Part shown: in pieces, positions 46,669 to 64,000 of the stretch | Position numbering within the stretch: position 1 is the stretch's first letter | Layout of the letters: the number at the start of each line of letters is the position of its first letter | Source: Chloroflexi bacterium CFX4 | Lineage (GTDB): Bacteria; Chloroflexota; Anaerolineae; Aggregatilineales; UBA2796 | Reading direction: 5' to 3' | NCBI GenBank assembly: GCA_021404685.1 | Contig: QWHC01000021.1 | Coordinates: 1 to 64,000 of the forward strand | Length of the DNA stretch: 64,000 nt | Notes under the pieces: model-generated | What the model saw: only the letters and a program-made list of their open reading frames with translations | Database searches by the model: none | What the model was told of the DNA's origin: nothing | Translations under genes and position numbers: made by a program

Positions 46669-46988
46669 TTAGGTGCTTCCGCCTCGATGCGTTGATGCCT
46701 CGATCCTAGTGTAGCACGCTTACCATGCGCCAAAAGTTGTGGACACGTTTGAGAATGCATATAAGTTCGTACTCATGCACCTTTAAGTCTGATTTTCGTT
46801 TAGAATTAGTGTTAGTCATGAATTTTTGTAATGTAATTGTAACACACATTTGTTCGCAATTCCGCTATCTATCATATTCTGTTGAAAAGGATCACAAAGT
46901 TGTGATATGCTAACGGTTAGAAATGGTTGTGTTTTCCACGCCTTGCCTTCCTTCATTATGTGCGTCGAAACACTTAGAGGAGCCAGCC
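46669..46988. other. AT-rich intergenic region upstream of the TIR-CBS gene
   Basis: This 320-bp gap is much AT-richer than its flanks and has no convincing gene. It holds the TIR-CBS promoter and palindrome (46882-46911) and the Shine-Dalgarno AGAGGAG before 46989. The long AT-rich stretch may be foreign DNA or a control region. Confidence 0.6.
46882..46911 (+). promoter_or_regulatory. Promoter with operator-like palindrome for the TIR-CBS gene
   Basis: TTGAAA (-35, 46882-46887) and TATGCT (-10, 46906-46911) are 18 bp apart. The spacer is filled by ATCACAA-AG-TTGTGAT (46891-46906), a perfect 7-bp inverted repeat. This is the textbook position for a repressor operator. The transcript would have a leader of about 70 nt. 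Confidence 0.6.
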
Positions 46989-48428
46989 ATGCCTCACGTC
47001 TATATTGCTCATCGGCAATCAGCGAGTGCTGAGTTAGCGCGGCTTATTAGAGATTATCTGGTTAAACAGCACTACACCGTTTTTTTAGACGTGGAGGGCA
47101 ATAATCTACGTCTGCGCGAAGATATTATCCTTGATGAAATTGTATCCTGCCATTGCTTTGTATTGGTGTTAGATCGTAACACCTTTGAGGATGCCAGCAT
47201 TGTGAGCCAAGTGGCACACGCGCTGCGCTACAAGACCGATCAGATCGTGGTGGTGGCACGTGATGGGTTGGATGCAGATCGCATCGCGCACACCATTATC
47301 TCTGAAATTAGCCCCATTCTCAGCTACAACTGGCTGCCCTATAACCACACCTACGCAGAGACAAACCTGGCCCGCATTCTAAGCGCGGTGCAGGCTGCCG
47401 CAGGCTACGCCACGTCGTCACAGCCTGTGGTGGAAATTCCCACACAGCATCAGGAACAGCCAGAAGCAGACCCAGCACCCACCCTTGTGCGCCCGCCGCG
47501 TTTCCCGCCGCCGCCACCACCGCAGGCAGCGGCGCCCGATCTCAGCGTTGCCGACTGTATGCGTCAAAAACCTTTGACTGTGGCAGCCGAGACCAGCATC
47601 GGCATTGCGCTTGCCTATATGGAGATACAGCGCATCACCTACCTGATCGTCAACAACCACCACAACGCCCTTGAGGGCTGGGTGAGCAAAGCTGATTTGG
47701 TTAGCTATTTGCCCTCACCACTCTATGCAGATTCAGGGATGACCACCGCGCAATATACGCAGCGCTTTCAGAAGCGCTCTGCGGAGTCGGTGCGCGATCA
47801 TATGCATCATCGTGGCAATGACCTTGAGTGGTTAGCGCCTGAAATGGCTTTGAAAAATGCCCTAGATCGCTACTTTTTGAAGACGTTCAATCGCGGTGCG
47901 CGGCGCTTCCGCATTCGCCAATTTCCCGTGCTGGATAACACTTTTGTGGCGGTTGGTGTGCTTGGTTACTGGATGATCATCAACCAATTCATAGCGATGG
48001 ACTGCCTGCCGGATGTAACCGTGGGCAGCATCATGCTGCCATCCGATGATCGGGATAACTTCATTGAAGTGCGCCCTGATGTAACGCTTGGCAACGCTGA
48101 GGAGTTAGCGCGCATTAACGGCTGGTCGCACATTGTGATCAGCGATGAACAGAGCAACTTGGTAGGCATGACCACCATCGAGAAGATTCGCCGTATCCTT
48201 GATCCTGATATGCCCATGCTGAGCAACTTGCCCGTCCTGACTGAAATGCGTCCTCATCAGCGCTGCCGCGCTCTGCACGAAAACGACCCGCTGACAGACG
48301 TGATCGCGCTCTTTGCCAATGATGATATTGGCGCGCTGCCTGTGGTAGAACGTGGTGGTTTGCGGCTGCGCGGCTTGCTCACCTATGTTGAGGTGTTGCG
48401 CGCACTGCGGAAATTGCTCGGCACATAG
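46989..48428 (+). CDS. TIR-domain protein with four CBS domains
   Basis: The 479-aa protein begins with a TIR-like domain (1-135): HVYIAHRQSASAELA, VFLDVEG, and CFVLVLDRNTFEDASIV. The position of the catalytic Glu of NADase TIRs aligns with Gln74 (IVSQVAHAL). A Pro-rich linker (about 140-182) with six consecutive prolines leads to four CBS motifs (about 186-245, 268-340, 348-405 and 415-478). CBS pairs bind adenine nucleotides. The protein may therefore couple nucleotide sensing to a TIR scaffold. ATG 46989 follows AGAGGAG; the frame is open 22 codons earlier. Confidence 0.82.
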   Translation: MPHVYIAHRQSASAELARLIRDYLVKQHYTVFLDVEGNNLRLREDIILDEIVSCHCFVLVLDRNTFEDASIVSQVAHALRYKTDQIVVVARDGLDADRIAHTIISEISPILSYNWLPYNHTYAETNLARILSAVQAAAGYATSSQPVVEIPTQHQEQPEADPAPTLVRPPRFPPPPPPQAAAPDLSVADCMRQKPLTVAAETSIGIALAYMEIQRITYLIVNNHHNALEGWVSKADLVSYLPSPLYADSGMTTAQYTQRFQKRSAESVRDHMHHRGNDLEWLAPEMALKNALDRYFLKTFNRGARRFRIRQFPVLDNTFVAVGVLGYWMIINQFIAMDCLPDVTVGSIMLPSDDRDNFIEVRPDVTLGNAEELARINGWSHIVISDEQSNLVGMTTIEKIRRILDPDMPMLSNLPVLTEMRPHQRCRALHENDPLTDVIALFANDDIGALPVVERGGLRLRGLLTYVEVLRALRKLLGT

Positions 48429-48638: not shown

Positions 48639-48675
48639 GTGAAAGTAACCTTAGGTTTGGGAAATTGGTGGCGTG

Positions 48676-51150
48676 ATGGCAGGCGGACAACCTCTTACGT
48701 ACCTTAAAAACGGGCAAATGCTCGGTAAGTATCGCATTGATGGATTGCTTGGGCGCGGCAACATGGCAGAAGTCTACCGCGCCTTTAATCCTGATTTGGC
48801 GCAGCACGTAGCGATCAAGGTCATTCATCCACTGCGCCTTGAGGATGGCGAATCAGTGGCGCGCTTTCGGCAAGAAGCGCGTGCGGTGGCTGCCCTTAGC
48901 CATCCGAACATCTTACGCGTCTTTGATTTCGACGTGCAAGACGGCTTGCATTATATGGTGATGGAACTCATCGAAGGTGAGACTCTGGCAAAGCGCATCA
49001 CCGATTCACAGCACGGCTTGCCTTTAGCTGAGGTGCGCCGCTGGTTCAGTCAATTGTGTGCCGCCCTGGACTACGCCCATCAACGCGGCGTGATTCACCG
49101 CGATGTGAAGCCTGCCAACGCCATGCTTGCCGATGGTGAGCGCCTGATCCTAACGGATTTTGGCTTGGCACGCCTTGCCGACTCAGAGAAGCTGACGGCA
49201 ACCGGCTATACGACTGGCTCGCCCGCTTATATGTCGCCCGAACAGATTGAAGGCGCGCATGACCTGACCAATCGTGCCGATATTTACGCGCTTGGCTGCC
49301 TGCTCTTTGAGCTGATCACAGCGCGCACGCCTTTCAGCGGCAACTCTACGGCAAGCATCATTGTCAAGCACCTTAACTCACCGCCACCCGCGCCAAGCGA
49401 GTTGGTGCAGGGCTTGCCGCAAGGCGTTGATCACGTTGTGCTGCGTGCGCTCAGCAAAAATCCCGCAGATCGATTTGCCACTGCCCGCGAGATGTCGGAA
49501 GCATTTGAGGCAGCCTTAGCAGGGCAGCCACTTTCGACTGCTTCTGCCGTAGTTGCCGCCGCGGCAGGCGATGCCGACGCCACGACGCGCCTGCCTGAGT
49601 CTGAAAAGCGCACCCAAACTACCAAACCTGCTCAAGTTGATCTTGAGGCTGGCACAGTGCGCGTCTCAAGCACCGAACGGCTGCCCAGTGGCACAGGGCG
49701 AATGCCTTCCTTTGCCGCGGTTGCCATTGTAGCAGTCATCAGCTTGTTGGCGGGCTTGAGCTTGGTAGCAGTGCTGAGCCAGCCTACCGACCCACCAGCA
49801 CCCGAAGGCATGGTCTTTGTGCGCGGCGGCACCTTCCTGATGGGCTTGGCAACTGGCGATGATCATGAACGCCCGCCGCACAACGTAACTGTGCCGCCCT
49901 TCTTCATAGACCGTACCGAAGTGACCAACCGCGCCTACTTTGATTTCATTCGGCGCACAGGCTTTGAAGCACCCGCCGCATGGGTTGAACCCGGCATTGA
50001 TCCGACGTGGGAAGTGAGGGCGACCGAAGGCTATCTGATCGGTGATATTAATGACCGCTTTAGCTACGATGGTGCAATGGTAAGCGCCCTCACTGATGCG
50101 GAAGTCACCCTCACCTTGAACCCTGCTACCAACCGCGGTGAAGTCATTGTCACCTTCACGGGCGAGATTAAAACAGAGGCAAATCGCACTCTGAAGGGTG
50201 AAATTCGCATTGTGCATACTGTATTCAGAGGCACAACGGCATTTCAGGAAGGCGGCATTGGTGATCACGTGCATATGCACGGCGATACTGGGCAGGAATC
50301 ATCCATCTTGCCGGCAGTAGTGGGTGATATTAACACTTGGGGCAATGCCGATCTCTATGTGGATGGCGAACGAGTTTATCGTGGGCTTGGCGCGCACATG
50401 ATGGTCATGCCCGCCGTGCGCGATGCTGATCACCGCGTGCTGCGCGCCGACGGCACTTGCTGCTATTCACCGCAGCGCCCTGCCGATGGGCGTGTGGATG
50501 TTTCGCGGCGTGAACTGCTGCTGCTTCTCTCGCGGGAAGATGGCGGCGAATACAGCGGAACGCGCCCTCGCGGCGCACCGCCGGAAGAACCTGTCTGGCT
50601 CGATCTTTATTTCCGCCAAGTGCAGTTTGTGCGGCGTCCGCCGGCCCCGAACATTCCGCCTAACGCGGATAATCAGCCCGTGACGGGCGTTTCGTGGGCA
50701 GAGGCAGTCGCCTACTGCCGTTCCATTGGCAAGCGCTTGCCCACAGAGGCAGAGTGGGAATACGCCGCCCGCGGCACAGATGGGCGCTTGTATCCATGGG
50801 GCAGCACCACGGATAACATACCGGCTAACGTGAATTCGGGCGGCTTGCGCGATGTGGGCAGCTTTCCCGAAGGCGCCAGCCCGTTTGGCGTGCTGGACAT
50901 GGCAGGCAATGCGTGGGAATGGGTCTCGGACTGGTACGCAGCCGATTACTACGCCCAAAACGAGAACCAAAATCCGAAAGGCCCTGCAACGGGCAGGGAG
51001 CGCGTGCTGCGCGGCGGTGGCGCACGCCCACGCGATCCACTTGGCTTGGTGGAGTATCGCGCTACGCACCGCTTGCCGATGGCGCCTGATACACGCGGCG
51101 TCTTCTTCGGCTTCCGCTGCGCGCAGGATGCGCGTGAGGTCGTTCGCTAA
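48676..51150 (+). CDS. Membrane Ser/Thr protein kinase with split FGE-like domain
   Basis: The 824-aa protein has an N-terminal Hanks-type kinase (about 15-275): [31 protein letters not shown] and SPEQ. A transmembrane segment lies at about 346-367. Outside the membrane is a formylglycine-generating-enzyme-like (SUMF1) fold (376-824) with [25 protein letters not shown] and [12 protein letters not shown]. It is split by an insert of about 210 residues (450-660). The RGG-x8 region lacks the catalytic cysteines, so it is a likely sensor, not an FGE. GTG 48673 is an alternative start. Confidence 0.9.
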
Positions 51151-56119: not shown

Positions 56120-56196
56120 ATATGTAAGGAAGCGCCGTGCATGTTATAGGTCATTTAACGGCATTATCTAAAAAAACGGCGCGAGGAGTTTTTATC

Positions 56197-56586
56197 ATGG
56201 GCGACGCACCCAACCCACCGCAGAAAATCTTGGTGATTGATGACGATCCTGCCCAGTGCGAGATGATCGCTACCACACTCAGCTACGCGGGCTACCAAAC
56301 CACAATGGCTGCCAACGGCACAGAAGGCTTGGCACGTTTTCAGGCTGACCCACCCGATATGGTTGTGGTAGACTTTGCCATGCCCGGCATGAACGGCATT
56401 GAGTTTGTGAACGCCATGCGCGCCATCGAGACGCAGCGTACACTCGTGCTGATGGTGGCGGGCTATGCTCAGAGCTTCCTCGCCGCGCTGGATATTTCCG
56501 GTGGCGTGGATAGCTACCTGATAAAGCCAATTTTGCAGCAAGATTTAGTGGTGCGTGTGGCAGATTTGTTTGCCGGACGCTTCTAG
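56197..56586 (+). CDS. Single-domain response regulator
   Basis: The 129-aa protein is a lone receiver. The acidic triad is in LVIDDDPAQ, the phospho-acceptor is Asp59 (VVDFAMPGMNG), and Lys is in YLIKPI. The Thr/Ser position is MVAGYA, where Ala replaces the conserved Thr/Ser, so signal transmission may differ. ATG 56197 follows GAGGAG; the frame is open 20 codons earlier. It lies 14 bp ahead of the acyl-CoA dehydrogenase. Confidence 0.92.
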   Translation: MGDAPNPPQKILVIDDDPAQCEMIATTLSYAGYQTTMAANGTEGLARFQADPPDMVVVDFAMPGMNGIEFVNAMRAIETQRTLVLMVAGYAQSFLAALDISGGVDSYLIKPILQQDLVVRVADLFAGRF

Positions 56587-56600
56587 GAGCATTTTTACCA

Positions 56601-57752
56601 ATGAATTTTGAACTTACCCAAGAACAACGCATGTATCAACGCGCCGTGCGCGACTTCTGCGAAGGCGAGATCAAGCCTTATGCGGCGGAGATCGAACAGC
56701 AAGGCGATTTACGTTGGGAAGCCATCCGCAAGATGCCGCAGCTAGGCTTAACAGGCATCCAAGTGCCTGAGGAGTACGGCGGCGCTGGCATGGATACGAT
56801 CAGCGCGTCTATCGCTGTGGAGGAGCTAGGGCGCGTTTGTGGCTCAACAGCGCTCTCGCTCTCCGCCCATAATGGCTTAGGCTGTATGCCGATTGTGCGT
56901 TGGGGAACGCCTGCCCAAAAAGAGAAATTTTTGCCGCGCCTGACCAGCGGCGAGACGCTCGGCGCCTTAGCGCTCACCGAACCGAACGCCGGCTCGGACT
57001 TGATGAGCGCCCAAACCAGCGCCACCTTAGAAGGTGACCAGTACGTGGTGAGCGGCGCGAAGGCCTGGATCACCAATGCCCGCTTTGCGCCCGTCATCAT
57101 CACCCTGTCGCGCACGGATAAGGCGGCTGGCACACGTGGCTTTAGCCACATCCTCGTGGAGACCGACCGCGCAGGGCTAACCATCCATCCGCCCGAAAAA
57201 AAGATGGGCTTGAAAGGCTCTTCCACGCACATGATCAGCTACGATAATGTTTGCGTGCCTGCCGAGAACGTTTTGGGTGAGGTTGGGCGCGGCTTTCAGC
57301 AGACGATGGAGACGCTTGACGGCGGTCGGATCAGCATTGGCGCGCTGAGCGTTGGCATCGCACAGGGCGCCTTTGAAGAAGCTGTGAAATATGCGCGGCA
57401 GCGTGCTGCTTTTGGCAAGCCGATCAGTGAACATCAGGCGATTCAGTGGATGATTGCCGACGCCGCGCTTGAAATTGATGCAGCGCGCCTCTTAGTCTAC
57501 CGTGCAGCATGGTTGAAGGATCAGGGCAAGCCTTTCACCAAAGAGGCGGCGATGGCGAAACTCTTTGCCAGCGAAGTGGCAGAGCGCGTCTGCTTCAATG
57601 CCATCCAGATACATGGCAGCTATGGTTACAGCGCCGAATTTCCCGTTGAGCGCATGTACCGTGATCAGCGCCTGATGAGCATTGGCGAAGGCACCAGCCA
57701 AATTCAGCGCTTGGTGATTGCACGGCGTGTGCTGAGTGAGATGCAGGGCTAA
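56601..57752 (+). CDS. Acyl-CoA dehydrogenase
   Basis: An FAD-dependent enzyme for the first step of beta-oxidation or branched-chain acyl-CoA oxidation. The 383-aa product has the family signatures ALTEPNAGSDLMS, GSKAWITN-type GAKAWITNA, and YGYSAEFPVERMYRDQRLMSIGEGTSQIQRLVIAR. The Glu in GEGT matches the catalytic base of short- and medium-chain members. The gap after the response regulator is 14 bp. The acyl specificity is not clear. Confidence 0.93.
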   Translation: MNFELTQEQRMYQRAVRDFCEGEIKPYAAEIEQQGDLRWEAIRKMPQLGLTGIQVPEEYGGAGMDTISASIAVEELGRVCGSTALSLSAHNGLGCMPIVRWGTPAQKEKFLPRLTSGETLGALALTEPNAGSDLMSAQTSATLEGDQYVVSGAKAWITNARFAPVIITLSRTDKAAGTRGFSHILVETDRAGLTIHPPEKKMGLKGSSTHMISYDNVCVPAENVLGEVGRGFQQTMETLDGGRISIGALSVGIAQGAFEEAVKYARQRAAFGKPISEHQAIQWMIADAALEIDAARLLVYRAAWLKDQGKPFTKEAAMAKLFASEVAERVCFNAIQIHGSYGYSAEFPVERMYRDQRLMSIGEGTSQIQRLVIARRVLSEMQG

Positions 57753-57826: not shown

Positions 57827-59965
57827 ATGCTCGCACAACAATCACTGGTGAAGACTATGCCAACGCTTTTTGCCCAAGTCGTCTGCCTTTCCTGTGGACA
57901 TCAAATGCTGCCTGACCCGATGATCGCCAAGTGCGAACGCTGTGGCGACTCGTGGCTGGATGCCCGCTATCACTATTCAGAAGTTAAGTGGGCGCACGGG
58001 CTGCCGCGCCGCCCATTCTCGCTATGGCGCTATGAGGAATTGCTGCCACTCAGCGATCAAACACAGCGCGTCTCGATTGGGGAAGGCATGACGCCGATCA
58101 TCCGTGCAGATCGGCTTGGTGAATCGCTTGGTCACGAACATATCCTAATCAAAGATGAGCGCCGTATGCCAACCAATTCCTTTAAGGATCGGCAGGGCGC
58201 TCTCTCTGTCTCCATTTTGCGGCAAGCAGGCATCAAAGAATGCGTGTTAGCCTCCACAGGCAACGCGGCGGCTGCCTATGCTGCCTACTGTGCGCGAGCA
58301 GGCATCAAGCTGTGGGTCTTTCTGCCCAGCATGGTGCCTGCCGAGAAAATGCGCGAACTTGGCTTGTACGGCGCAGAGCTGATCAAGGTGACCGGCACCT
58401 ACGATCAGACCAAGAAAGTTGCCGCTGACTTTGCTGCCCGCCGCAATCTCTACTTTGATCGCGGCTCAAAAGGCATTCCCGGCAAGGAGAGCATGAAGAC
58501 AATGGCGTTCGAGATCGCTGAGCAGCTTAGCCTCGACTACGGCGAGGACGGACGCTGGATCGCGCCGGATTGGTACATTCAGGCAGTCAGCGGCGGCATC
58601 GGACCACTAGGCGTCTACAAGGGCTTTCTGGAACTCTACCAAATCGGCTTGATTGATAAAGTGCCAAAGCTCGGCATTGTGCAGGTTTCAGGCTGTGCGC
58701 CGATGGTACGTGCCTTTGAGCAGGGCAGCGCCCAGGCTGAACCTGTCGTCCCTGAGACGCTGATCACTGTGCTGGCGACGGGCGATCCCGGTCACGCTTA
58801 TACCATGCTGCGCGACGCGATCCTGACGCACGGCGGCGCGATGGTCAGTGTGGATGACGGGCAGGCATTCCGTGCCATGCGCCGCGTAGCGCGCACCGAA
58901 GGCTTCAGTGTAGAACCTGCCACAGCGGTTGCCTTTGCCGGCTTGGAGAAGCTGATCGCTACAGGTGCGGTGCAGCCGCACGAAAAACTGCTGCTCAACT
59001 GTTCCGGACACACCTTCCCGGCAGAAAAGCACATCCTCGAAGATCAGTATGTGCTGGAACTTGAACTCGGCGCGGCTGCACCGTCCCAACAGACTGAGGG
59101 ACTCGGCGCGGCACTGGAACGCCTTGATGAACAGATCACAACCGTGGTTGTGATTGACGACAATCCACACGATACACGCCTTATCCGCCGCTTGTTGCAG
59201 GCGCATAAGAACTACCGCGTCTTTGAGTCCAACAATCCGCTGGATGGACTTGATCTGGTGCGCCAGCGCCGCCCTGATCTGGTTATTACCGACCTGACCA
59301 TGCCCGAAATTGATGGCTTCAGCCTGCTGGAAACGCTTAAAGCAGACCCTGAGACTGCTCATATCCCAGTCATCGTGCTGAGCGGCAAATCGCTGACGGC
59401 ATTGGATAAGGCGCGCCTGAGCGGACAAATTGACTCGGTGTGGTTGAAGGGCAACTACAGCACCCGCGAATTGGTTGACCACGTGGTGACGACGCTCAAG
59501 GATCGCCCTGCTGAAAGCCATACCGATGAGCCGCTTAGTCCTGCGCCGACGGCAAGAAAGCCGGCTGAGCCACCACAGCCAATGGAAGGTGCTTTTAAGG
59601 TGCTAATCGTGGATGACAATCCTTATGATGCGCGTTTGGTGCGCCGCATTCTGGAGGCAAGCCGCAAGTTCAGCGTCACAGAGGCGCGCACAGGCGAAAG
59701 TGCGCTAAAGGCGATGCACGAATCGCCGCCGCATTTGGTCATCTTGGATATTATGCTGCCGGATATGGGCGGGCTAGACGTGCTGCAACACATCCGCGAA
59801 TCGGACGATTTGCGAAATGTGCGCGTGGCAGTCATGAGCGCCAAAGAGATCGGCGAAATTGACCGCGCGCGCCTACGCGATGCTGTCTTTTGGCAGAAAG
59901 CGACTCTAGACCGCAAACGCTTGGTCGAGGCAGTCGAGGCGCAGCTTACCCAAGCGAACGGCTAA
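57827..59965 (+). CDS. Threonine-synthase-like PLP enzyme fused to two receiver domains
   Basis: The 712-aa protein begins with a zinc ribbon (C20, C23, C36, C39). A threonine-synthase fold (about 48-425) follows with PLP Lys120 in NSFKDRQGA, ASTGNAAAAYAAY and SGGIGPLGVYKGF. Two complete CheY-like domains follow. Receiver 1 (about 438-555) has Asp489 (ITDLTMPEIDG), Ser in VLSGKS and Lys in VWLKG. Receiver 2 (about 590-705) has Asp641 (ILDIMLPDMGG) and Lys in FWQKA. I know no standard family with this layout. ATG 57857 is an alternative start. Confidence 0.9.
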   Translation: MLAQQSLVKTMPTLFAQVVCLSCGHQMLPDPMIAKCERCGDSWLDARYHYSEVKWAHGLPRRPFSLWRYEELLPLSDQTQRVSIGEGMTPIIRADRLGESLGHEHILIKDERRMPTNSFKDRQGALSVSILRQAGIKECVLASTGNAAAAYAAYCARAGIKLWVFLPSMVPAEKMRELGLYGAELIKVTGTYDQTKKVAADFAARRNLYFDRGSKGIPGKESMKTMAFEIAEQLSLDYGEDGRWIAPDWYIQAVSGGIGPLGVYKGFLELYQIGLIDKVPKLGIVQVSGCAPMVRAFEQGSAQAEPVVPETLITVLATGDPGHAYTMLRDAILTHGGAMVSVDDGQAFRAMRRVARTEGFSVEPATAVAFAGLEKLIATGAVQPHEKLLLNCSGHTFPAEKHILEDQYVLELELGAAAPSQQTEGLGAALERLDEQITTVVVIDDNPHDTRLIRRLLQAHKNYRVFESNNPLDGLDLVRQRRPDLVITDLTMPEIDGFSLLETLKADPETAHIPVIVLSGKSLTALDKARLSGQIDSVWLKGNYSTRELVDHVVTTLKDRPAESHTDEPLSPAPTARKPAEPPQPMEGAFKVLIVDDNPYDARLVRRILEASRKFSVTEARTGESALKAMHESPPHLVILDIMLPDMGGLDVLQHIRESDDLRNVRVAVMSAKEIGEIDRARLRDAVFWQKATLDRKRLVEAVEAQLTQANG

Positions 59966-61995: not shown

Positions 61996-62272
61996 AGGAA
62001 ACATGCCCTTCTCTAAATGCTGCGTGCAGCGCAACGGTTTGTTGCAATTATAACGCATTAATGCTGCTTTGTGCGCGCTGTGTGCAGAATAACCATCGCT
62101 GCATTTGATCATCAAAAGACTGCCTTTTTATAACACCGCACCAACCCGATTTAGCCTCTATTTCTGCGGTGAGCGCTTCCCCAAGCATTGGAATAGCATT
62201 GTGATGCTGCCATCTCCGAATCGATTCTATAACAGAACGTAGAGAGCAAGCACCGAGAGAGTGGTAAATCTT

Positions 62273-64000
62273 ATGCTGCAACCAAAAGTGGATTCAAAGC
62301 AAATTGCAGACGCCTTGGAGAAGCTGGTACAGGCGTATGGTAAAGAAGTTGTCCTAGACGCAGTTCACGCCTTTATGGGTAACTCGGATGTTCCGCCTAG
62401 CACCGAAGCTGATCTGCATGAGGCACTGCGCGAAGCCGAGCAATTTCGCGGCGCGCTGAATGAGGCTGCCATCGTCGCCGTGACGGATGTCACAGGCAAA
62501 ATTGAGTATGTGAATGATAAATTCTGCGAGATTTCAAAATACAGCCGTGAAGAACTGCTAGGGCAGGATCATCGCATCATCAACAGCGGCTACCATCCTA
62601 AAGAGTTTATCCGCGATCTGTGGGTGACCATTGCCAACGGCAAGGTGTGGCGCGGCGAACTGCGTAATCGTGCCAAAGATGGCACCATCTACTGGGTAGA
62701 TACGACCATTGTGCCGTTGCTGGATGCGAGCGGCAAGCCACGTAAGTATATCGCTATTCGCTATGAGATCACTGACCTAAAAGTGCAGCAAGAAAACGCA
62801 CGCCGCCGTGCGACCGAACTAGAGACCGTGGCGCAGGTGAGTGCTGCTGCGGCGACCATCCGCGATACCTACAAGCTGCTGCAAACCGTCTCGGACTTGA
62901 CCAAGACGCGCTTCGGTCTCTATCACGCGCATGTCTACCTGCTGGATGCAGAGGGTAAAAACCTTGCGTTGGCAGCCGGCGCGGGACAGGCAGGGCGCAT
63001 GATGCGCCAAGAAGGGCGTTCAATTCCCTTGAACCACCCACATTCATTGGTGGCAAGTGCTGCACGCGCACGGCAAGCTGTCATCGTGAACGATGTGGCG
63101 AATAATCCTAACTTCCTGCCGAACCCACTGCTGCCAAACACCCGCGCTGAGATGGCGCTGCCGATGCTGGTTGGTGATCAGTTGGTTGGTGTGCTAGACC
63201 TGCAAAGTGACCAAGTTGGGCATTTCACCGATGAGGATATCCGTGTGCAGGGCGCGCTTGCCGCGCAGATTGCCGTTGCTGTGCAGAATACGCAGGCATT
63301 CGAGAAGATTGAGCGCACGCAAGCAGCACTCCGCGAGAGCGAAGAAATCTATCAGGCATTTGCGCGCAACTTCCCGAACGGCACCCTCGTCCTTTATGAT
63401 CATGAACTCCGCTACAGGCTAGTAGATGGCTCCAAACTTGCTGATGCTGGCTTGAGCAAAGATATGGAAGGCAAGACCATCTATCAGGCGTGGTCGTCAG
63501 AGGTTGCTCAAGCCCTTGAACCACAGTACATTAGCGCATTGGTCGGCGAGACTCGCGTTACCGAAGTGCCGTTTGGTGGCAAGGTTTGGCAACAATTTAC
63601 TCTGCCTATCCGTGACCATGATGGGCAGATCATTGCCGGTATGGTCATGAGCCAAGACGTGACCGATGTTCGCCAAGCCCAAAACGAAATCCGCCGCGCT
63701 TTTGAGGAAACCAACCGTATCTATGAGAACTCCACTGACCTGATTGGCGTCTCCGGTTTAACGGATGTCACCTTCAAGCGCCTGAATCCTGCATGGGAAC
63801 GCACGCTCGGCTGGACGCTTGAAGAACTCATGTCGCGCCCCTACATTGAATTTGTCCATCCTGATGATGTTGAACCAACGAACCAAGAGGCAGCCCGCCA
63901 AATTGCCGAAGGCAGAACGAGCCTCTCTTTCGTCAACCGCTACCGCACCAAAGATGGCAACTACCGCACGCTCTCTTGGAACGCGCAACCGAATATTCCT
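62273..64000 (+). CDS. PAS/GAF sensor protein, probably a histidine kinase (5' part)
   Basis: The frame stays open for 576 codons from ATG 62273 to the window end, so the gene is incomplete. A short helical N-terminus is followed by a PAS domain (about 65-175: VTDVTGKIEYVNDKFCEISKY, GYHPKEF, W-RGELRNRAKDGTIYWVD). A GAF domain (about 195-345: FGLYHAHVYLLD, VIVNDVANNPNF, GVLDLQS) comes next. Two more PAS-like domains begin at about 360 and 480. A kinase or cyclase output would lie beyond the window. Its start is divergent from the DUF1349 gene. Confidence 0.88.
   Translation, partial: MLQPKVDSKQIADALEKLVQAYGKEVVLDAVHAFMGNSDVPPSTEADLHEALREAEQFRGALNEAAIVAVTDVTGKIEYVNDKFCEISKYSREELLGQDHRIINSGYHPKEFIRDLWVTIANGKVWRGELRNRAKDGTIYWVDTTIVPLLDASGKPRKYIAIRYEITDLKVQQENARRRATELETVAQVSAAAATIRDTYKLLQTVSDLTKTRFGLYHAHVYLLDAEGKNLALAAGAGQAGRMMRQEGRSIPLNHPHSLVASAARARQAVIVNDVANNPNFLPNPLLPNTRAEMALPMLVGDQLVGVLDLQSDQVGHFTDEDIRVQGALAAQIAVAVQNTQAFEKIERTQAALRESEEIYQAFARNFPNGTLVLYDHELRYRLVDGSKLADAGLSKDMEGKTIYQAWSSEVAQALEPQYISALVGETRVTEVPFGGKVWQQFTLPIRDHDGQIIAGMVMSQDVTDVRQAQNEIRRAFEETNRIYENSTDLIGVSGLTDVTFKRLNPAWERTLGWTLEELMSRPYIEFVHPDDVEPTNQEAARQIAEGRTSLSFVNRYRTKDGNYRTLSWNAQPNIP

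What the first reader, a model, noticed from the sequence alone, without database searches (positions are those of the whole stretch)
57827..59965. Threonine-synthase-like enzyme fused to two intact receiver domains
One open frame carries a zinc ribbon, a PLP fold with its lysine and two CheY-like receivers whose phospho-acceptor Asp, Ser and Lys are all present. Amino-acid enzymes are not normally coupled to phosphorelay domains. Two lone response regulators and a large sensor protein are also in the window. The inference is that phosphorylation could control a PLP reaction, or that the PLP fold now senses an amino acid for signalling.
Basis: partly seen in the sequence, partly recalled or inferred. 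Interest (0 to 1): 0.85.

Follow-up and report, generated by a model that had tools for sequence, protein, structure and literature searches.

The report
Amino-acid enzyme fused to phosphorelay receivers
A group of Chloroflexota bacteria carries a conserved protein in which a threonine-synthase-like vitamin-B6 enzyme is joined to one or two receiver domains and encoded beside its own sensor kinase, which suggests that an environmental signal directly switches an amino-acid reaction on or off.

Summary
The frame is real, intact and not an assembly join. It encodes a zinc ribbon, a threonine-synthase-like fold-II PLP (PALP) domain and two complete receivers (Asp479 and Asp631, counted from the likelier start at 57857). 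I found 127 distinct fused proteins, PALP-REC (~550 aa) and PALP-REC-REC (~710 aa). They form one clade separate from unfused threonine synthases and occur in 99 of 298 sampled genomes of the window's class, and in a second class. The PLP lysine and receiver Asp and Lys are kept wherever covered. A sensor histidine kinase lies directly upstream in 65/75 PALP-REC and 29/47 PALP-REC-REC loci; 4/164 control genes have one within two genes. In this window the orthologous kinase lies 2.3 kb downstream. Genomes also keep ordinary threonine synthases, and the fused enzymes lack an Arg conserved in solved threonine synthases while fixing their own pocket residues. Best reading: a response regulator whose output is a PLP enzyme, probably not a threonine synthase. 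Fusion, conservation and kinase linkage are shown; control of catalysis by phosphorylation is inferred. Metabolic enzymes as receiver outputs are known in kind; I found no description of this one. New variant of a known kind.

The parts
57857..59965 (+).
   Evidence: close relatives begin at M(P/S)(T/S)LF
57857..57991 (+). zinc ribbon, Cys10/13/26/29
   Evidence: 126/126 covered sequences keep all four Cys
58073..59008 (+). PALP (fold type II PLP) domain; PLP lysine K110 at 58184-58186; STGN 133-136; PLP-phosphate loop SGGxGP 245-250
   Evidence: Pfam PF00291 E=1.5e-64; AlphaFold model matches threonine synthases first; invariance
59021..59134 (+). connector between the PALP domain and receiver 1, ending in a conserved helix (EGLxAALxxLDE)
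   Evidence: 46% mean pair identity in the family against 17% for the receiver1-receiver2 linker; alignment A1
59135..59503 (+). receiver 1, phospho-acceptor Asp479 at 59291-59293, Lys531
   Evidence: Asp and Lys 127/127
59591..59956 (+). receiver 2, phospho-acceptor Asp631 at 59747-59749, Lys681
   Evidence: Asp and Lys 50/50 two-receiver proteins
56137..56586 (+). lone receiver, upstream in the same conserved gene string (receiver - acyl-CoA dehydrogenase - fusion, also in two other genomes of the genus)
56601..57752 (+). acyl-CoA dehydrogenase between the lone receiver and the fusion; genus-level neighbour, role unknown
62261..64000 (+). N-terminal part of the probable cognate sensor histidine kinase (1477 aa, PAS/GAF/HisKA/HATPase; continues past the window to contig position 66694)
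   Evidence: Pfam; best of 52-54 histidine-kinase matches in the genome to kinases that adjoin PALP-REC-REC genes elsewhere: 62% and 60% identity, runners-up 45% and 52%

Best explanation
The protein is a response regulator whose output module is an N-terminal fold-type-II PLP enzyme. A dedicated PAS/GAF sensor histidine kinase, usually encoded directly upstream, phosphorylates Asp479 (and in two-receiver forms Asp631). The change is passed through the conserved helical connector to the PLP domain and alters its activity, so a sensed signal controls an amino-acid reaction without transcription. The PLP domain is related to threonine synthases but has a family-specific substrate pocket, so the substrate is probably not O-phosphohomoserine. 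In part of the PALP-REC branch the product may be exported by the co-encoded EamA transporter. Shown: the fusion, its single origin, universal phospho-acceptors and PLP residues, kinase linkage. Inferred: phosphotransfer, allosteric control, substrate and export.
For: Receiver-1 Asp and Lys 127/127; receiver-2 Asp and Lys 50/50; PLP Lys 126/126. Histidine kinase immediately upstream on the same strand in 65/75 PALP-REC and 29/47 PALP-REC-REC loci, gaps mostly short and some 4-nt overlaps; within two genes in 53/55 and 21/36 fully flanked loci against 4/164 control genes. A lone receiver or receiver-kinase directly downstream in 87 loci. Ortholog of the neighbouring kinases present in the window. 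The PALP domain is the best-conserved part (60% mean pair identity against 50% and 42% for the receivers), and the PALP-REC1 connector is conserved while the REC1-REC2 linker is not. Eighty near-invariant positions in the zinc ribbon and PALP domain, of which Q113, S245, P250, N381, H385 and others differ from unfused enzymes. EamA transporter within three genes in 26/67 PALP-REC loci, distantly related to TIGR00950 carboxylate/amino acid/amine transporters. Fused clade separated from unfused with SH-aLRT 100.
Against: No activity, phosphotransfer or substrate was measured. Conserved PLP residues are also expected of a PLP-fold sensor. Kinase linkage is weaker for the two-receiver form, where 18 of 47 lack an adjacent upstream kinase, this window included. 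EamA was found next to no two-receiver form (0/47), so export is not a general feature. The two kinase queries are homologous to each other and so not independent. The model's pTM of 0.59 leaves the domain arrangement unresolved.
Confidence: 0.6

Rival explanations
1. The PLP fold is no longer a metabolic enzyme but a ligand sensor or regulatory pseudo-enzyme: it binds an amino acid and sets the phosphorylation state or partner choice of the receivers, as MocR/GabR regulators use an aminotransferase fold (from knowledge).
For: Ordinary threonine synthases coexist in the genomes. The pocket departs from the solved enzymes. The protein sits among kinases and receivers rather than among biosynthetic genes in most loci.
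Against: All PLP and catalytic residues are invariant and the PALP domain is the most constrained part. An EamA transporter (26/67 PALP-REC loci) or, in about ten loci, a threonine synthase gene follows in the same gene string, which fits an enzyme better.
Confidence: 0.22
2. It is a true threonine synthase whose activity is switched by phosphorylation.
For: Closest solved relatives by sequence and fold are threonine synthases. Some PALP-REC members pass the TIGR00260 cut-off (up to 186.6 bits against 167.1). In several loci a threonine synthase gene lies two genes downstream with short gaps.
Against: The window protein is below every NCBIfam threonine synthase cut-off. The NSxNxxRxEGQKT-type stretch shared by the solved threonine synthases aligned is replaced; the Arg is present in 11/14 unfused relatives and was the residue in none of 64 fused ones, with Ala/Gly/Ser commonest there. 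All nine genomes tested carry at least one unfused threonine synthase over the cut-off.
Confidence: 0.15
3. The fusion is an assembly join, or a chance fusion without function.
For: None found.
Against: 127 distinct fused proteins in many genera from independent assemblies, one clade, conserved neighbours.
Confidence: 0.01

Closest known systems
Response regulators with enzymatic output domains (PMC5847659, section 'RRs with enzymatic output domains')
   Same: Receiver attached to a standard metabolic enzyme, placing its activity under environmental control; [quoted passage not shown]
   Different: Neither pyridoxal, PALP nor threonine occurs in the main text of that paper. The archaeal cases there have narrow distribution (a family or a genus); this one spans two classes and 99/298 sampled genomes of one class. 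Here the receiver is C-terminal to the enzyme.
Threonine synthase (ThrC; PRK08197 and TIGR00260 types)
   Same: Fold, zinc ribbon, PLP lysine, STGN motif.
   Different: Receivers attached; family-specific pocket; a conserved Arg absent; window protein below cut-offs.
Cysteate synthase (TIGR03844; CapA2, PDB 9k3c)
   Same: Related PLP enzyme of the threonine synthase group; weaker match (117.6 bits; fold hit rank 16).
   Different: Far below the 324.9-bit cut-off; no receiver.
MocR/GabR regulators (from knowledge)
   Same: A PLP enzyme fold combined with a signalling module.
   Different: They use a fold type I aminotransferase and a DNA-binding domain; here fold type II and receivers with a kinase.

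Membership tests
Two-component response regulator | Receiver domain with acidic pair, phospho-acceptor Asp and Lys | tested here: met
   REC1 Asp479 and Lys531 127/127; REC2 Asp631 and Lys681 50/50
Two-component response regulator | Cognate histidine kinase | tested here: met
   By genetic linkage only: adjacent upstream kinase in 94 loci; ortholog present in the window
Two-component response regulator | Phosphotransfer from a kinase | not testable with these tools
   needs biochemistry
Response regulator with metabolic-enzyme output | Receiver fused to an intact metabolic enzyme domain | tested here: met
   PALP with all PLP residues conserved
Response regulator with metabolic-enzyme output | Enzyme activity changes with receiver phosphorylation | not testable with these tools
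   needs biochemistry
Fold type II PLP enzyme (PALP) | Fold and PLP lysine | tested here: met
   Pfam, AlphaFold model and Foldseek, K110 126/126
Threonine synthase | Score over a curated equivalog cut-off | tested here: not met
   274.9 against 303 (PRK08197), 141.4 against 167.1 (thrC) for the window protein; some PALP-REC relatives pass thrC
Threonine synthase | Arg in the NSxNxxRxEGQKT-type stretch (phosphate-binding role is from memory of the Thermus enzyme) | tested here: not met
   commonest residues in 64 fused are Ala/Gly/Ser, against Arg in 11/14 unfused; Arg present in the solved enzymes aligned
Threonine synthase | Conversion of O-phosphohomoserine to threonine | not testable with these tools
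   needs assay
Cysteate synthase | Score over the TIGR03844 cut-off | tested here: not met
   117.6 against 324.9 bits

The most novel reading that the evidence does not exclude
A widespread Chloroflexota class of response regulators carries out a new PLP reaction, distinct from threonine synthesis, that is gated directly by phosphorelay and, in one branch, yields an exported amino-acid-like product, so that signal transduction controls small-molecule output in one step.
Probability: 0.3. Interest if true: 0.8.

Novelty: new variant of a known kind. Interest (0 to 1): 0.62.

Why it matters
Most response regulators act on transcription, cyclic dinucleotides or protein partners. A widespread, kinase-linked family whose output is an amino-acid PLP enzyme would be a direct and testable case of phosphorelay control of metabolism, with natural one-receiver and two-receiver versions for comparison. 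It also warns that automatic 'threonine synthase' names on such proteins are probably wrong.

Tried and rejected
Assembly join or frameshift: rejected by conservation. Apparent ~990-1000 aa versions: these were read-through into the next gene, a separate receiver-histidine-kinase. Amino-acid-sensing dCache motif (RxWY) in the upstream proteins: only 4 hits, none in an adjacent kinase, so no support. Fusions on plasmids: no place covered 80% of the query, and the best listed covered only the PALP part. Literature: searches joining threonine synthase or PLP with response regulators found no description. The census PMC4558063 does not mention it in its main text; the 2010 review of output domains (10.1016/j.mib.2010.01.005) is not held.

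Full report
OBSERVATION. The frame at 57827-59965 is open and codes for 712 aa. Pfam finds PALP at 83-394 and two Response_reg stretches. Relatives begin at M(P/S)(T/S)LF, so the start is probably 57857 and the protein 702 aa long; residue numbers below use this start. The four zinc-ribbon Cys, K110 and both receivers' phospho-acceptors (Asp479, Asp631) are present. The AlphaFold model (mean pLDDT 84.1, pTM 0.59) is confident over the domains, with low-confidence linkers at 386-426 and 551-575. Of its 22 best solved matches 21 are threonine synthases; CapA2 (cysteate synthase) is rank 16.

NOT AN ARTEFACT. Full-length fused relatives exist at 87-89% identity in four genomes of the genus, 72% in the family and about 54-60% across the order. 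In 400 genomes drawn from the phylum 42 have a strong match, including genomes outside the class. In 298 genomes of the class 99 do. Named records in the genome collection are almost all Anaerolineae and other Chloroflexota MAGs. After removing duplicates I had 127 distinct fused proteins, 77 with one receiver and 50 with two. In a tree of the PALP domain 64 fused sequences form one side of a branch (SH-aLRT 100) with 14 unfused homologues on the other, so the fusion probably arose once. The three classes (unfused, one receiver, two receivers) need 4 changes, so the second receiver was gained or lost a few times. That tree is a quick one and two unfused rows have long branches.

INTACT SIGNALLING AND PLP MACHINERY. 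Receiver 1 keeps Asp479, Lys531 and a Ser or Thr at 509 in 127/127; receiver 2 keeps Asp631 and Lys681 in 50/50; K110 and the zinc Cys are kept in every one of the 126 sequences that cover them. The PALP domain is the most conserved part (mean pair identity 0.60, against 0.50 for receiver 1 and 0.42 for receiver 2). The PALP-receiver1 connector (0.46) is conserved and the receiver1-receiver2 linker (0.17) is not. This fits mechanical coupling of receiver 1 to the enzyme, which is inference.

GENETIC CONTEXT. A histidine kinase gene lies immediately upstream on the same strand in 65/75 one-receiver and 29/47 two-receiver loci; within two genes on the same strand the figures are 53/55 and 21/36 fully flanked loci, against 4/164 other genes of the same loci. 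Gaps are often 0-20 nt and some genes overlap by 4 nt. The kinases examined are multidomain GAF or PAS/GAF proteins, some with dCache or HAMP, some hybrid. Directly downstream usually stands a lone receiver or a receiver-HisKA-HATPase protein. An EamA transporter follows within three genes in 26/67 one-receiver loci and 0/47 two-receiver loci. In about ten loci an unfused threonine-synthase-type gene follows the lone receiver; the two checked are of the PRK08197 type. The window's genus has no kinase next to the fusion; it has a lone receiver and an acyl-CoA dehydrogenase upstream. But when the catalytic ends of two kinases that adjoin two-receiver fusions in other genomes were searched in the window's genome, the best of 52-54 matches was both times the kinase at 62261, at 62% and 60% identity; the next was 45% and 52%. 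So this kinase is the probable partner.

WHAT THE ENZYME IS NOT. The window genome has two unfused threonine synthases over the curated cut-off, and each of the other eight genomes checked has at least one. The window protein lies below all NCBIfam threonine synthase cut-offs and far below cysteate synthase, although some one-receiver members pass the thrC model. The solved threonine synthases aligned share an NSxNxxRxEGQKT-type stretch (NSLNSLRLEGQKT in Arabidopsis). The fused family has (A/S)KSIxxxESMKT, with Ala/Gly/Ser commonest where the Arg stands in 11/14 unfused homologues. From memory of the Thermus enzyme this Arg binds the substrate phosphate. About 35 positions, several next to active-site motifs (R102, Q113, T134, S245, P250, N381, H385, T386), are fixed in the fused family and different in the unfused set. 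The pocket looks specialised, not decayed.

MECHANISM. Most likely: sensor kinase -> Asp479 (and Asp631) -> change in receiver contacts -> change in PLP activity. Shown: all parts, their conservation and linkage. Inferred: phosphotransfer, direction of control, substrate, export. A sensor role of the PLP fold is the main rival.

KNOWN OR NEW. Receivers joined to metabolic enzymes are a known kind: a census states that bacterial cases exist and lists archaeal ones (PMC5847659). I found no paper on a PLP-enzyme output, but the library lacks most subscription papers. Hence 'new variant of a known kind'. The range outside Chloroflexota was not tested beyond plasmids.

Noticed in passing
48673-51150: Protein kinase domain fused to an FGE-sulfatase (formylglycine-generating-enzyme-like) domain.
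   Followed up: no
46923-48428: Protein with two CBS domain stretches and a weak TIR_2 match at its N terminus, below the Pfam cut-off.
   Followed up: no
56137-56586: The lone receiver keeps its Asp and Lys but its usual Ser/Thr position appears to read Val (VLMVAGY), read by eye.
   Followed up: no
G000:C6:69943-71589 (L026:9938-11584): The window's genome has a second, one-receiver fusion followed by a receiver-histidine-kinase and an EamA transporter.
   Followed up: partly
L121: A genome-collection contig titled Pleurocapsa minor carries a fusion and matches in contig length and position the G018 genome placed in the window's own order; the title is probably a mislabel.
   Followed up: partly
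L053:9092-11731 and relatives: An 880-1040 aa protein family near several two-receiver fusions; the member tested has no Pfam match.
   Followed up: no
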